Source of the DNA: a bacterium
Lineage (GTDB): Bacteria; CSSED10-310; JAJRTK01
Reading direction: 5' to 3'
Assembly (NCBI GenBank): GCA_024278345.1
Contig: JAJRTK010000494.1
Location: 1 to 8,775, forward strand
Length of the DNA: 8,775 nt
Part shown: positions 1-8,775 of the stretch, in pieces
Layout of the letters: every line of letters begins with the position of its first letter
Position numbering within the stretch: the first letter of the stretch is position 1
Position numbers and translations under genes: made by a program
The notes under the pieces: model-generated
What the model saw: only the letters and a program-made list of their open reading frames with translations
Database searches by the model: none
Told to the model about the DNA's origin: nothing

Positions 1-39
1 CGCGTTTTTGCTTTACACTCCGCGGCGCCGCCCTGGTGG

Positions 40-58
40 CACCGGCATCTTGCCGGTG
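40..58. repeat. short GC-rich palindrome, probable dispersed repeat
   Basis: The sequence CACCGGCATCTTGCCGGTG is a perfect inverted repeat: two 8-base arms around a TCT loop. No T-tract follows on either strand, so it does not look like an intrinsic terminator. From memory, very similar 'accggcatcttgccggt' palindromes recur many times in some PVC-group and other environmental genomes, where they are often mistranslated as part of proteins. Here the kinase frame remains open through it, which is why the frame appears to extend upstream of the real start. That it is dispersed is an inference; only one copy lies in this window. Confidence 0.45.
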
Positions 59-196
59 GCGGGCTGGACGGGATTCACGGAATTGAACGGTGGGTTCCTT
101 TCGTGCGTGGACTTGTCAACCGGATCTGATAGGTCCCCTCGTGGAGAACCGCCTCCTTCCCGTGGAATTCCCCTTTCACACCAAGCTCGAAGAACG

Positions 197-2242: not shown

Positions 2243-2274
2243 CGGCCCGGAGGGTATCCACGCAAGGCGGGACA
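2243..2274. repeat. left target duplication (2243-2251) plus left TIR (2252-2274)
   Basis: Nine bases, CGGCCCGGA, are followed directly by the left 23-bp terminal inverted repeat. The preceding three bases are the TAG of the kinase gene, so the insertion point is the first base after its stop codon. Confidence 0.8.
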
Positions 2275-2521
2275 GAACAGAAAAAAAAGGAAAACGCGTA
2301 GCGTACAAAAACGTGGGTGGGGAACTCGTTGCTTTTCATTGCAACGGGTCCTTGCGCGCTCCCTGGTGGGTGCAGGGCAAAGCCCTGCCTGGGGACCGGG
2401 GACGGAGTCCCCGGACCACCTACGGGTAACGCGCGGCGTGACCCGCCGAGCGATAGCGAGGCGTTGCCCGGACGCTTGCGATTCCACAGTCCCGGGAATG
2501 TCCCGCCTTGCGTGGATACCC
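2252..2521. mobile_element. 270-bp MITE-like element with 23-bp TIRs and 9-bp target duplication
   Basis: The ends are perfect 23-bp inverted repeats: 2252-2274 starts GGGTATCCACGCAAGG, and 2499-2521 is its exact reverse complement. Immediately outside both ends lies the same 9 bases, CGGCCCGGA (2243-2251 and 2522-2530), the signature of a transposition target-site duplication. No convincing ORF fits inside, so the element is non-autonomous and would need a transposase supplied from elsewhere. Nine-base duplications are made by several DDE families (IS4-type and IS1-type among them), so the parent family cannot be named. The left duplication begins at the base after the kinase TAG, and the right one ends 16 bp before the end of the converging vault gene, so neither gene is broken. 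The interior is rich in GC hairpins. Confidence 0.8.
2324..2445. other. cluster of four hairpins inside the MITE-like element
   Basis: Four inverted repeats follow one another. A (2324-2349) has a 9-bp stem around CGTTGC/GCAACG with one G-T pair and an 8-nt loop. B (2372-2388) is GCAGGGC-AAA-GCCCTGC. C (2396-2414) is CCGGGGAC-GGA-GTCCCCGG, with two more G-C pairs beyond an A-A mismatch. D (2423-2445) has two stem blocks around one mismatch and a GCG loop. Lying between convergent genes, these could block read-through from both sides, but no classical U-tract follows a strong stem. On the minus strand the run of eight T at 2281-2288 comes after only a weak 4-bp stem. Structure is seen directly; the terminator role is inferred. 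Confidence 0.5.
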
Positions 2522-2530
2522 CGGCCCGGA
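2499..2530. repeat. right TIR (2499-2521) plus right target duplication (2522-2530)
   Basis: Exact reverse complement of the left terminal repeat over 23 bases, followed by the second exact copy of CGGCCCGGA. Pairing stops after 23 bases on the inner side, which defines the length of the repeat. Confidence 0.8.
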
Positions 2531-2546: not shown

Positions 2547-4553
2547 CTACTCCTCCTCTGCTTCCGCCTTGGGCAGCAAAGTTGAAATCGTGCGGCCCAG
2601 CTTAGTTCCTCCGATGATCTCTCCGAAAATCGTGGCAACGTCCTTGCCTTTGAAGAGGCTCACGAGGTTCATGTTCCGGGCCACTTCTCCCAGCATCATC
2701 TTGTCGCCAAGGGCAGTGAGCGCTTCGATAAGGGCTGGCTGAATCGCCTTTCGCTCCGCCACGATGGCCTCGCTCCTGGACTGGATGCTTTCCAGCTCCA
2801 TTTGGTGAAGGATTCGGCGGTATTCCTGTTCTTCCCCATGGAGCAACCTTTGCGCGTCTACCTTGGCGGCGGTCTCCAGGCCGATCCTCTCGGAGGCCGC
2901 TAGCACATCCATCTTCCTGCGAAGGATCTCGGCTTGTAGACGCACCTCCTCCCGCTTAGCCTCCAACGTCACCTGCTGGTGGGAGAGCTCGTTGGTATTT
3001 TCCAGGTCCTCCAATCGCCCTGTGTGGTCCAGCTTTCTCGTAAGCGCCCGGATCTGTGCCTCGAGCTCGGTCATCTCGCGCTGCAAGTCCAGTCGCTTGC
3101 GGCCGATCTCGTGGCTGAGCTTGTCCGATCGGAGCTTTTCGCTCTCTTGCTGATCCCCGATGACCAAAGAGACTGATTCCCTTTGGATCCGCTCCAGGAG
3201 CTGGGCGATATCCGCATCGAGGATCTCGCTCTCCAGGACCTCCACCTCGGTCACGTGCATCCCATTTTCTTCGAAGAGCCGGCCTTTTCGCCCCTCCTCG
3301 GTTCTCTCCCCCAAAAGGGTATCGCGGATCACCGTGGACACCTTGGGCCAGAGCTCTGTAAGAGACATTTGGCGGCAACGGCTCCTCACGATGGAGCGAA
3401 GGTGGTCGCACAAGACGCCTACGTAGTTCTGATGGTTGAACCAGGTCTCTCGATACTCGGCGTCGAAGGTGACCCGATAGCTCACTTTGATGTCGATCTG
3501 CACGAAATCGGACGTTTTGACTCGAATGACGTCGGAAATCCGGTTCGCCATGGTGCGAAGGAAACAGGTCTCAAGACACCGAACATCAGTCTTGGGAGTT
3601 CCCGTGGACAGCTTGAGCTTCACCAGGGACTCTTCGTACTCCAAAAGCTCGACACAGGGCCCCTCGATCAACCGCTGTCCCCGTGCTGACGTCGCCAGGG
3701 CCGCCGTATTGTGGGGAACATTGATGGAAATAGCCCAGGGAGTCGTCACCGGCTCCGATGTTCTCTTGTGAGGCTCGTTCTCCGCGATCCATAGGTTCCA
3801 CTGGTCCACGGGGACGGTCCGGGTGATCTGAACTTCCTTCCGGGGATCGACCAGATAGGAGAGCTTGCCCCGGACCAAACGCGCCTCGCCCGTGGCCAGG
3901 TCCCGGACGTAGATTCCACTCTTCTGGTCGATGCCGATGGCTTCGATGAAGACGTGGCTGTGATCGTTCCCCACGTGAGGCTGCCCAGTGAGGGGATCGA
4001 GCACTTCGATCTCATTGAAGGGAAAGAAGAAAGAGTTGACGCCATAAAGGATCATCTCATCGCCGGGGTAGTACATCTCCTGGGTCAATTCGACGCTACG
4101 GGGCAGACGCAGTTTCAGCTTTTCCCGGCTGATGGGCAGAATAAAGCGGAGCCAGAGTGCCCGCTGGGGCAGAAGCTCGTAGGCATAGTAGATCCGGTTG
4201 TCCGACCCTTCGGTCATGAAGGAATCGTAAGGACCGGGAAAGACCCTGGCGGGGCCCACCTTGATCTGCCGTTTGCCGTCAGCGTCGAGGATGACGCAAA
4301 ACTCTTTCTCCCCGAGGACCACGGCCTGGCGTACCAGGCGGTTCTTCCGGATCTCCCGTTCCAGCGCCCGGCGATGGACATCGCTCACGAGGAAAGCCGC
4401 GATCTCATCCTTGGAAAGAGTTGGCTCCTCAGTTTTCTTTTCCGGGGCCGGCGTCACGGTGCGCTGCATAGCCTGACGCGTCCTGGCGGACTGGTCCACC
4501 GCTTTGAATCTGGATCCCTTCCGCTTAGACCTGGGGCGGGGCTTTTTTGCCAA
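2547..4553 (-). CDS. bacterial major vault protein homologue, C-terminal part (repeats, shoulder, cap helix, cap ring)
   Basis: 668-residue protein whose domain order and local sequence match the C-terminal two thirds of eukaryotic MVP, the self-assembling shell protein of vaults. Residues 1-75 are a basic, low-complexity leader (KKPRPRSKRK). Residues 80-275 hold vault repeats: EFCVILD matches the MVP segment NYCVILD, and GIYVRDLATGEARLVRG matches GIYVQDVKTGKVRAVIG. Residues about 276-440 are the SPFH-like shoulder (INVPHNTAA against YRVPHNAAV; LSTGTPK against LSAGRPK). Residues about 441-605 are a charged coiled coil, the cap helix. Residues 606-668 (ALIEALTALGDKMML...NLVSLFKGKDVATIF) resemble the cap ring. 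The family is established from eukaryotes, and I recall homologues noted in some bacteria; particle formation here is inferred. The start is TTG at 4553 with a weak GAAGAG in front; GTG at 4499 and ATG at 4469 are alternatives and would only trim the leader. The N-terminal partner lies 18 nt upstream in the same frame. An SPFH/stomatin-like protein is the fallback call. Confidence 0.88.
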   Translation of the reverse strand: MAKKPRPRSKRKGSRFKAVDQSARTRQAMQRTVTPAPEKKTEEPTLSKDEIAAFLVSDVHRRALEREIRKNRLVRQAVVLGEKEFCVILDADGKRQIKVGPARVFPGPYDSFMTEGSDNRIYYAYELLPQRALWLRFILPISREKLKLRLPRSVELTQEMYYPGDEMILYGVNSFFFPFNEIEVLDPLTGQPHVGNDHSHVFIEAIGIDQKSGIYVRDLATGEARLVRGKLSYLVDPRKEVQITRTVPVDQWNLWIAENEPHKRTSEPVTTPWAISINVPHNTAALATSARGQRLIEGPCVELLEYEESLVKLKLSTGTPKTDVRCLETCFLRTMANRISDVIRVKTSDFVQIDIKVSYRVTFDAEYRETWFNHQNYVGVLCDHLRSIVRSRCRQMSLTELWPKVSTVIRDTLLGERTEEGRKGRLFEENGMHVTEVEVLESEILDADIAQLLERIQRESVSLVIGDQQESEKLRSDKLSHEIGRKRLDLQREMTELEAQIRALTRKLDHTGRLEDLENTNELSHQQVTLEAKREEVRLQAEILRRKMDVLAASERIGLETAAKVDAQRLLHGEEQEYRRILHQMELESIQSRSEAIVAERKAIQPALIEALTALGDKMMLGEVARNMNLVSLFKGKDVATIFGEIIGGTKLGRTISTLLPKAEAEEE

Positions 4554-4571: not shown

Positions 4572-5381
4572 TTACTGGGCCTGGAGCGCCTGCTCCATGA
4601 AGAGGTTTGCCACCCCATCGGCGGGCAGCTCCGGGGCGGACTGAGGCTGGGGATCAGCCTGTGAACGGCTGGGCAAGGAAGCCAGGATCCGCCGCGCCGC
4701 CGCGGCGGTCATCGCCTTTCCCCGGCCATCAAGGGAAAGGTCCGGAACAACGTCAACCCCTGTGGGAGGAATGTAGAACTGGGTGTCAAGGCCACGGATC
4801 ACGATGAGTTGCCCTCGCGTCAACTCGGTGGGTTCGGCCTGTTCCGCCTCTGATGTGCTAGAGGCTCCGGAGACATCTTCCGCCGTCGCCGTGGTAATGG
4901 CGGCGGATCGGACTGTAATATCGTAGTAGATCGCCGACTGTTCCACTTCCCCATAGACCTTCACCACCAGGTATTGGTTGGAAGCCAGCTCGTGGACATC
5001 GCGAACCTCAACTCTCTGGCCGGGACGCAGATAAAAGCTACACGGCCCCGGGATCATGTGGCGCGTGCCATTTTTCAGGGATCGCGACTCGTTGCGCCCG
5101 GGCCGGAAACGGCCATTGGGACCCTCATCCTCCAACTTATCGGCCAGAGGATTATAAAGGACCGCATAGTGGGAATCGCTGAGCTCGATCATCCGCTGCG
5201 GTCGACCCGAGTTGTCTTCCCGAAAACCGCCTTCCCCGTCGTCCACCACAACGCGATCCGCTGCCGTCGGGGAAACCATCGTGGGCCCGACGTGTAGAAT
5301 GACTTCCCCCTTGTCATCGTCCTGCACCCAAAGAAACTGCCGTTCAGTGACCGGAATCTTGCGACTGCCTCGCTCGCCCAT
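4572..5381 (-). CDS. bacterial major vault protein homologue, N-terminal repeat part
   Basis: 269-residue protein resembling the first vault repeats of MVP. Residues 8-60 (FLWVQDDDKGEVILHVGP) parallel the MVP start, YIHVLDQNSNVSRVEVGP. Residues 65-145 (HYAVLYNPLAD...SFYLRPGQRVEVRDVHEL) parallel the second repeat, HYCTVANPVS...FPLYPGEVLEKDI. Residues 187-215 (RGQLIVIRGLDTQFYIPPTGVDVV) parallel the [21 protein letters not shown] segment. A Ser/Thr/Glu/Ala-rich insert (about 160-186) and an Ala/Pro/Gln-rich tail (about 216-269) are not vault-like. There is no signal peptide or membrane segment. The chosen ATG at 5381 has an AGGAGG seven bases upstream; an in-frame ATG 14 codons earlier lacks such a site. 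It ends in TAA 18 nt before, and in frame with, the C-terminal vault gene. The pair plausibly forms one transcript and one particle. These repeats form the barrel wall and waist in eukaryotic vaults; that role here is inferred. Similarity is weaker than in the C-terminal part, but the neighbourhood supports the call. Confidence 0.78.
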   Translation of the reverse strand: MGERGSRKIPVTERQFLWVQDDDKGEVILHVGPTMVSPTAADRVVVDDGEGGFREDNSGRPQRMIELSDSHYAVLYNPLADKLEDEGPNGRFRPGRNESRSLKNGTRHMIPGPCSFYLRPGQRVEVRDVHELASNQYLVVKVYGEVEQSAIYYDITVRSAAITTATAEDVSGASSTSEAEQAEPTELTRGQLIVIRGLDTQFYIPPTGVDVVPDLSLDGRGKAMTAAAARRILASLPSRSQADPQPQSAPELPADGVANLFMEQALQAQ

Positions 5382-5388
5382 GCTCGTT

Positions 5389-5394
5389 CCTCCT
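5389..5394 (-). promoter_or_regulatory. Shine-Dalgarno site of the N-terminal vault gene
   Basis: The minus strand reads AGGAGG, then seven bases, then ATG at 5381. This decides the start in favour of 5381 over the in-frame ATG at 5423. It contrasts with the weak site in front of the downstream C-terminal vault gene. Confidence 0.8.
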
Positions 5395-5398
5395 GCTT

Positions 5399-5426
5399 GG
5401 ATTGTCCGGGACAAAGGGCCCAATCC
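5399..5426 (-). promoter_or_regulatory. possible leader hairpin before the vault genes
   Basis: On the minus strand GGATTG (5426-5421) can pair with CAATCC (5404-5399), leaving a 16-nt loop; an alternative pairing TTGTC/GACAA uses part of the same bases. The structure ends four bases before the AGGAGG, where it could affect ribosome access. The pairing is seen directly but is short, and a regulatory role is speculative. Confidence 0.25.
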
Positions 5427-8141: not shown

Positions 8142-8775
8142 GTGTCGAGATTCCGATGGATTCGGACCACAACATTCGCCTGCGTGGTGGGTCTGACCGC
8201 CGCGTTGATAGGGGCTCCTGGACCCGCTAACGCGGATTCAAAAAAGTCTTACGAAGAGATGGCAGCCGTCGTTCAGGCAGCGAGAAGTGCAGCTCGCAAC
8301 GCCAAGGACGCCGTCGCCGCCGCCGAGTTCGCGGCAAAAAAAGCCGAGGAGTCCGCCAATGCGGCAAAAGTGGCCCTCAGACGCGCCAAAAAGGCCGCCA
8401 AGGCTGCCATGGTTGCCGCCAATGCGGCTCAGGCTGCCGCTGACGCGGCTAAAGCCGCCCACGCGGAAGCTGTAAAACCCACCGACGCAAAACCCGCGGA
8501 GGCTAAACCGGAGACTAAACCGGAGGCAAAGCCCGCAGCCGTGAAACCAGCCGAAGCAAAGCCCGCTGAAGCTAAGCCGGAGGCAAAGCCCGCTGAAGCT
8601 AAGCCGGAGGCAAAGCCGGAAGCAAAACCGGAAGCAAAGCCCGCTGAGGCAAAGCCGGAAGCAAAGCCCGCTGAGGCAAAGCCGGAAGCAAAGCCCGCTG
8701 AGGCAAAGCCGGAAGCAAAGCCCGCTGAGGCAAAGCCGGAAGCAAAGCCCGCTGAGGCAAAGCCGGAAGCAAAGC
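8142..8775 (+). CDS. secreted Ala/Lys/Pro-rich repeat protein (3' end outside the window)
   Basis: At least 211 codons are visible; no stop occurs before the window ends. Residues 1-31 are a Sec-type signal peptide: Arg at 3, 5 and 8, a hydrophobic core (about 11-25), and a likely cut after ANA (A31/D32). Residues 36-110 are a very Ala-rich, Lys/Glu/Arg-containing helix ([18 protein letters not shown] and similar), likely a coiled coil. From about 111 on the protein consists of Lys-Pro-Glu-Ala repeats that settle into exact PAEAKPEAK units. Such Pro/Lys/Glu/Ala tracts are extended spacers in envelope-spanning or cell-wall proteins and also resemble histone H1-like tails; the signal peptide favours a periplasmic or surface location. 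The family is not recognised and the function is unknown. The adjacent Cys14 lacks a good lipobox, so a lipoprotein is unlikely. Confidence 0.75.
8640..8774 (+). repeat. 27-bp perfect tandem repeat, five copies, running off the window
   Basis: Units start at 8640, 8667, 8694, 8721 and 8748 and are identical at every base; the next base (8775) starts a sixth. Each unit encodes PAEAKPEAK. Imperfect relatives extend back to about 8475. Perfect identity including synonymous positions indicates recent expansion by slippage or recombination, and the copy number may vary between strains or be collapsed in assembly. Confidence 0.9.

What the first reader, a model, noticed from the sequence alone, without database searches (positions are those of the whole stretch)
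2243..2530. Intact MITE with 23-bp TIRs and a 9-bp target duplication between convergent genes
Perfect 23-bp inverted ends and an exact flanking CGGCCCGGA on each side show a transposition event that has not decayed, so it may be recent. There is no coding capacity, so an autonomous relative should exist in the same genome.
Basis: seen in the sequence. Interest (0 to 1): 0.62.

Follow-up and report, generated by a model that had tools for sequence, protein, structure and literature searches.

The report
Mosaic bacterial MITE, hundreds of copies
The stretch is a genuine small non-coding mobile DNA element: one of roughly two hundred copies of a 23-bp-ended family in this bacterial genome, built from interchangeable hairpin blocks that sister families with other ends also carry. 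It is a well-supported example of a known kind of element with an unusually modular design.

Summary
It is a real MITE. The host assembly (6.06 Mb, 550 contigs) holds 413 matches to this TIR (reversed-pattern control 0), and 233 to a second TIR. Of 39 two-ended copies sampled, 15 have exact 8-bp and 6 exact 9-bp duplications, and 9 more have one mismatch. Some copies have recognisable empty sites elsewhere in the genome. No copy was found in 97 other genomes, plasmids, phages or viral contigs. No intact autonomous partner was found. Fragments of ISL3, ISKra4 and ISAs1 transposases exist, but the ends I could read are not this TIR. ISL3 elements elsewhere have GGGTAT(T/C)C ends and 8-bp duplications, so an ISL3-type transposase is the best guess. 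Unexpected: the interior is an ordered row of hairpins whose second slot holds interchangeable modules, shared with families bearing other TIRs; elements are stop-poor; and three copies lie in frame inside genes (two convincing). New variant of a known kind. The neighbouring gene encodes a bacterial major vault protein homologue.

The parts
2243..2251 (.). left copy of the 9-bp target duplication CGGCCCGGA, directly after the stop codon of the + strand gene
2252..2274 (+). left TIR GGGTATCCACGCAAGGCGGGACA
2275..2317 (+). A end module: A-rich tract plus CGCGTAGCGTACAAAAACGTGGG, also found behind other TIRs
2318..2351 (+). slot 2 hairpin, here the GGGAACTCGTTGC..GCAACGGGTCC module; other copies carry GGGATCCCGTTGC.. 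or CCAGGGAGC-NN-GCTCCCTGG
2372..2388 (.). slot 3 hairpin GCAGGGCAAAGCCCTGC
2396..2414 (.). slot 4 hairpin CCGGGGACGGAGTCCCCGG
2421..2498 (-). B end module (GGGTCACGCCGCGCGTTACCC, GCTATCGCTCGGCGG, GACTGTGGAATCGCAAGCGTCCGGG read on the - strand)
2499..2521 (-). right TIR
2522..2530 (.). right copy of the 9-bp target duplication CGGCCCGGA

Best explanation
The stretch is a non-autonomous DNA transposon (MITE) of a large family, called F1 here. A transposase acting in trans bound its 23-bp ends and moved it into a staggered cut of 8 or 9 bp, duplicating the target. Shown: ends, duplications, copy number, different sites, empty sites. Inferred: a DDE transposase in trans, probably of the ISL3 type (GGGTAT.C ends, 8-bp duplication); the parent was not found. 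Internally the element is an ordered series of hairpins whose second slot has been exchanged between copies and between families with other TIRs, most simply by homologous recombination or template switching between similar copies (the exchange rests on the combinations seen; the mechanism is inferred). In the window it sits between two convergent genes and probably has no function there.
For: TIR and duplication exact. 413 TIR matches, control 0; 106 BLAST matches with only 40 candidates scored, up to 97% identity. Different duplications from site to site: 15 exact 8-bp, 6 exact 9-bp and 9 with one mismatch among 39 two-ended copies. Paralogous empty sites aligned across the junction for F1 copies at L078:2035 (ungapped) and L111:16807. 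An F2 sister element splits an ISL3 transposase gene with duplication GTTCAAGCG, and the Pfam match resumes on the other side (model 53-160, then 165-235). 87 of 242 contig ends lie in these elements against about 6 expected. Module exchange: three F1 A-end subtypes by three slot-2 modules, all nine cells occupied, and some of the same modules behind F2 or F3 TIRs. ISL3 elements of Pseudomonas plasmids have GGGTATTCG or GGGTTATCG ends with exact 8-bp duplications.
Against: No transposase bounded by this TIR was found. Own-genome ISKra4 and ISL3 fragments end in GGGTGCGGCTCTTTTT and GGCTCTTCGCCATC, not the F1 TIR. A third of the exact duplications are 9 bp, which is not classic for ISL3. 9 of 39 copies have no recognisable duplication. 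No species-level relative is held to show the empty site at this very locus.
Confidence: 0.9

Rival explanations
1. The F1 family is mobilised by an ISKra4-type transposase rather than an ISL3-type one.
For: ISKra4 transposase remnants are in the genome; ISKra4 elements from Calothrix and Nostoc plasmids have ends starting GGGT and exact 9-bp duplications, matching the 9-bp class seen here.
Against: ISKra4 ends, including the likely own-genome one, read GGGTGCGGCTCTTTT, sharing only GGGT with F1; the commoner duplication of F1 is 8 bp.
Confidence: 0.2
2. The element is now a host-maintained structured region, for example a bidirectional terminator or mRNA-end hairpin between convergent genes.
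For: Very strong folding; position directly after a stop codon between convergent genes.
Against: No terminator-like or promoter-like pattern in 2200-2600, no Rfam match; copies lie between convergent (6), divergent (5) and tandem (4) genes, and several inside ORFs.
Confidence: 0.06
3. The family behaves like Rickettsia palindromic elements: it spreads into coding genes and persists as added in-frame protein segments, and its stop depletion is selected.
For: F1 copies have 3.06 open frames of six against 1.27 in order-1 shuffles. In-frame copies lie in a kinase-AAA-TPR protein (L079:4075), a TPR-tailed membrane protein (L111:4011) and a helicase-like protein (L086:2416).
Against: Most copies are outside genes or near gene starts; copies are related, so the stop depletion is not many independent events; out-of-frame insertions may simply have been purged; translation of the inserts is not shown.
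Confidence: 0.2

Closest known systems
Prokaryotic MITEs such as Chunjie (Geobacter uraniireducens), Correia and ERIC (review PMC10969869)
   Same: Short, non-coding, TIRs plus target duplication, many dispersed copies, size variants and partial copies
   Different: Ordered slots with interchangeable hairpins, and a shared interior behind different TIRs; the words mosaic, chimeric and modular do not occur in that review
ISL3-family insertion sequences (e.g. elements on Pseudomonas plasmids, L226 and L227)
   Same: GGGTAT(T/C)C-type ends and 8-bp duplications
   Different: F1 has no transposase gene, its inner TIR sequence differs, and about a third of exact duplications are 9 bp
ISKra4-family insertion sequences (ISCasp2, ISCasp3)
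   Same: GGGT start and 9-bp duplications
   Different: TIR otherwise different (GGGTGCGGCTCTTTT)
Rickettsia palindromic elements (described in PMC10969869)
   Same: Palindromic element of about 150 bp or more found in frame inside unrelated genes
   Different: Only three in-frame cases seen here; the family is mostly outside genes; no sequence relation tested
TIMEs, Tn3-derived miniature elements (PMC4133298)
   Same: Non-autonomous, 262 bp, generate mosaic elements
   Different: 38-bp Tn3 ends and 5-6 bp duplications; the mosaics there are composite transposons, not exchanged hairpin slots

Membership tests
MITE | short element bounded by terminal inverted repeats | tested here: met
   270 bp, 23-bp perfect TIRs
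MITE | target-site duplication differing between sites | tested here: met
   8- or 9-bp duplications, different from site to site
MITE | many dispersed copies in the genome | tested here: met
   413 TIR matches, control 0
MITE | no transposase gene inside | tested here: met
   270 bp, too short for a transposase; the ORFs that touch it are short or run in from neighbouring sequence
MITE | mobilised by a related autonomous element with the same TIRs | tested here: inconclusive
   none found; contigs under 3 kb masked and genome 88% complete
ISL3-derived | ends of the GGGTAT/GGCTCT type | tested here: met
   GGGTATCC start as in ISL3 elements fetched here
ISL3-derived | 8-bp target duplication | tested here: inconclusive
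   15 copies with 8 bp, 6 with 9 bp, the window copy 9 bp
ISL3-derived | parent element encoding a PF01610 transposase between the same TIRs | tested here: inconclusive
   PF01610 fragments in contigs C5 and C395; the C5 one ends in GGCTCTTCGCCATC beside an F1 A module
ISKra4-derived | TIR of the ISKra4 elements | tested here: not met
   those fetched have GGGTGCGGCTCTTTT
Rickettsia palindromic element | in-frame insertion into coding genes | tested here: met
   three copies; the window copy itself is not inside a gene
Rickettsia palindromic element | sequence homology to RPE families | not tested
   no RPE sequences were compared

The most novel reading that the evidence does not exclude
A superfamily of bacterial MITEs in which ends and internal hairpin cassettes are exchangeable parts: different TIRs share one interior architecture, hairpin slots are swapped between copies by recombination, and the stop-poor interior lets copies persist in frame within genes, adding protein segments.
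Probability: 0.35. Interest if true: 0.6.

Novelty: new variant of a known kind. Interest (0 to 1): 0.42.

Why it matters
Bacterial MITEs are usually described as simple deletion derivatives of one insertion sequence. A genome where several TIR families share interchangeable hairpin cassettes, cover at least 2.6% of the sequence read and hold over a third of the contig ends examined would show that non-autonomous elements can evolve by swapping parts between families, and gives hundreds of copies in which to measure that. It also warns that draft assemblies of such genomes lose much of their mobile DNA.

Tried and rejected
ISKra4 as direct parent: remnants found, but the ends differ. ISL3 fragment in contig C5 as direct parent: at first attractive because an F1-type right end lies some 400 bp downstream; rejected because within about 30 bp after the stop codon the fragment ends in its own GGCTCTTCGCCATC.. 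end and abuts an F1 A module, i.e. it looks like an insertion into an F1 element. ISAs1 fragment at C373: different end. IS256 type: no match. ORFs inside TIRs with unusual interiors showed no obvious transposase by eye. A scan of 130 ORFs at contig ends against NCBIfam was uninformative about transposases, because only the 25 commonest families are listed. TIR in viral contigs: none. Literature searches for ISKra4/ISMich1 or an ISL3 MITE found nothing in the held library.

Full report
OBSERVATION. The coordinates and sequences given are exact. The arms 2252-2274 and 2499-2521 are 23/23 complementary and CGGCCCGGA flanks the element on both sides. The insertion lies directly after the stop codon of a PAS/histidine kinase/response-regulator gene (ends 2242; Pfam) and 16 bp before the end of a convergent gene (2547); without it the gap would be 25 bp.

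COPIES. In the own genome (6.06 Mb, 550 contigs, 87.9% complete) the TIR occurs 413 times with at most three mismatches, against 0 for the reversed control. BLAST with the whole element gives 106 matches although only 40 candidates were scored, the best at 95-97% identity. About 1.5 Mb of contigs was read. Counting these with the other loci, 39 distinct two-ended F1 copies with both flanks present carry an exact 8-bp duplication in 15 cases, an exact 9-bp one in 6, one with a single mismatch in 9, and none recognisable in 9. The duplicated words differ from site to site. F1 and sister elements cover at least 2.6% of the sequence read, and 87 of 242 contig ends fall inside them against about 6 expected, so the assembly breaks at these repeats and copies are under-counted.

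EMPTY SITES. After joining the flanks minus one duplication, the joined sequence of the copy at L078:2035 aligns without gaps across the junction to other places in the genome, and that of the copy at L111:16807 with small gaps. For the sister family F2 the case is cleaner: a copy with duplication GTTCAAGCG splits an ISL3 transposase gene, and the Pfam ISL3 match covers model positions 53-160 on one side and 165-235 on the other. The window site itself cannot be tested: no other genome of the same family or genus was found, and none of 97 other genomes, 7 of them of the same phylum, has the TIR; the whole element has no match in those 7, nor in plasmids or phages.

ARCHITECTURE. The two ends differ: one has an A-rich tract followed by about GCGYAGCGYACAAAAAYGTGGG (A), the other GACTGTGGAATCGCAAGCGTCCGGGCAACGCC (B). 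Between them lies a fixed order of hairpins. Slot 2 is filled by one of at least three different modules: CCAGGGAGC-NN-GCTCCCTGG, GGGAACTCGTTGC..GCAACGGG or GGGATCCCGTTGC..GCAACGGG (the last two resemble each other). Three A-end subtypes cross three modules with all nine combinations present, which descent without exchange does not readily explain. Elements with other TIRs, F2 (GGCCTCGGTCATGGTACCGGCCAC, 233 matches) and F3 (GGCCTCGTCCATCGTTTCGGCCAC, similar to F2), carry the same A module and some of the same hairpins and also make 8- or 9-bp duplications. I infer recombination or template switching between copies; the direct evidence is the combinations only.

CODING CONTEXT. F1 copies are depleted of stop codons (3.06 open frames of six versus 1.27 in first-order shuffles; 5.0 versus 9.8 stops); copies are related, so this is suggestive only. 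Three copies lie inside long ORFs that stay open with and without the element: a kinase-AAA-TPR protein (L079:4075), a membrane protein with a TPR tail (L111:4011) and a helicase-like protein (L086:2416) (Pfam). The first two show the duplicated target as a repeated peptide on both sides of the insert. Among copies that could be classified outside genes, neighbours were convergent 6, divergent 5, tandem 4; the sample is small and the gene calls are from a simple model of my own.

PARENT. No transposase bounded by this TIR was found. PF01609 gives only an ISAs1-like fragment (the ISAs1 label is my reading), PF00872 none, NF033572 gives ISKra4 remnants, PF01610 gives ISL3 fragments. Intact ISKra4 elements fetched from plasmids have GGGTGCGGCTCTTTT ends and 9-bp duplications, and the own-genome remnant in C464 has the same start near its N-terminal end. 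ISL3 elements from Pseudomonas plasmids have GGGTATTCG or GGGTTATCG ends with exact 8-bp duplications, and GGGTATCCG or GGGTATTCG lies about 30 bp after the transposase gene in Rhodanobacter and Lactococcus elements. The GGGTATCC start and the commoner 8-bp duplication favour an ISL3-type helper; I put this at about 0.55, ISKra4 at 0.2 and another family at 0.25. The ISL3 fragment in C5 has its own GGCTCTTCGCCATC end (read from the sequence) and seems to have inserted into an F1 element, so it is not the parent.

FUNCTION AT THIS SITE. No terminator-like, promoter-like or Rfam feature was found. The simplest reading is a neutral insertion between two convergent genes.

VERDICT. The modular interior and the in-frame copies go beyond what was reported. 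I rate it a new variant of a known kind.

Noticed in passing
window 2547-4553 (-): The gene next to the element encodes a bacterial major vault protein homologue (Pfam MVP_shoulder 1.6e-23, weak Vault_3 repeat), with 61-73% identical relatives in Myxococcota and proteobacterial MAGs. The adjacent gene 4572-5423 (-) has no Pfam match and may be its partner.
   Followed up: partly
window 1-139: The left edge of the contig lies in another dispersed repeat family ending in TGATAGGTCCCC; a copy is nested inside an F1 element in L076:126-798.
   Followed up: partly
own genome, e.g. L068:335-535, L078:13165-13413, L099:1002-1232: Sister MITE families F2 and F3 with different TIRs but shared hairpin modules; F2 TIR has 233 matches.
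   Followed up: yes
window 8460-8775: The gene at the right edge ends in a tandem repeat coding for EAKPA-like units; the contig stops inside it.
   Followed up: no
L148 (contig C17:1-1116), L151 (contig C464): Decayed ISKra4-family transposase genes, one at a contig start; the C464 remnant retains a GGGTGCGGCTCTTTTT end.
   Followed up: partly
own genome contigs under 3 kb: Short contigs read as N here, so collapsed multi-copy insertion sequences would be invisible.
   Followed up: no
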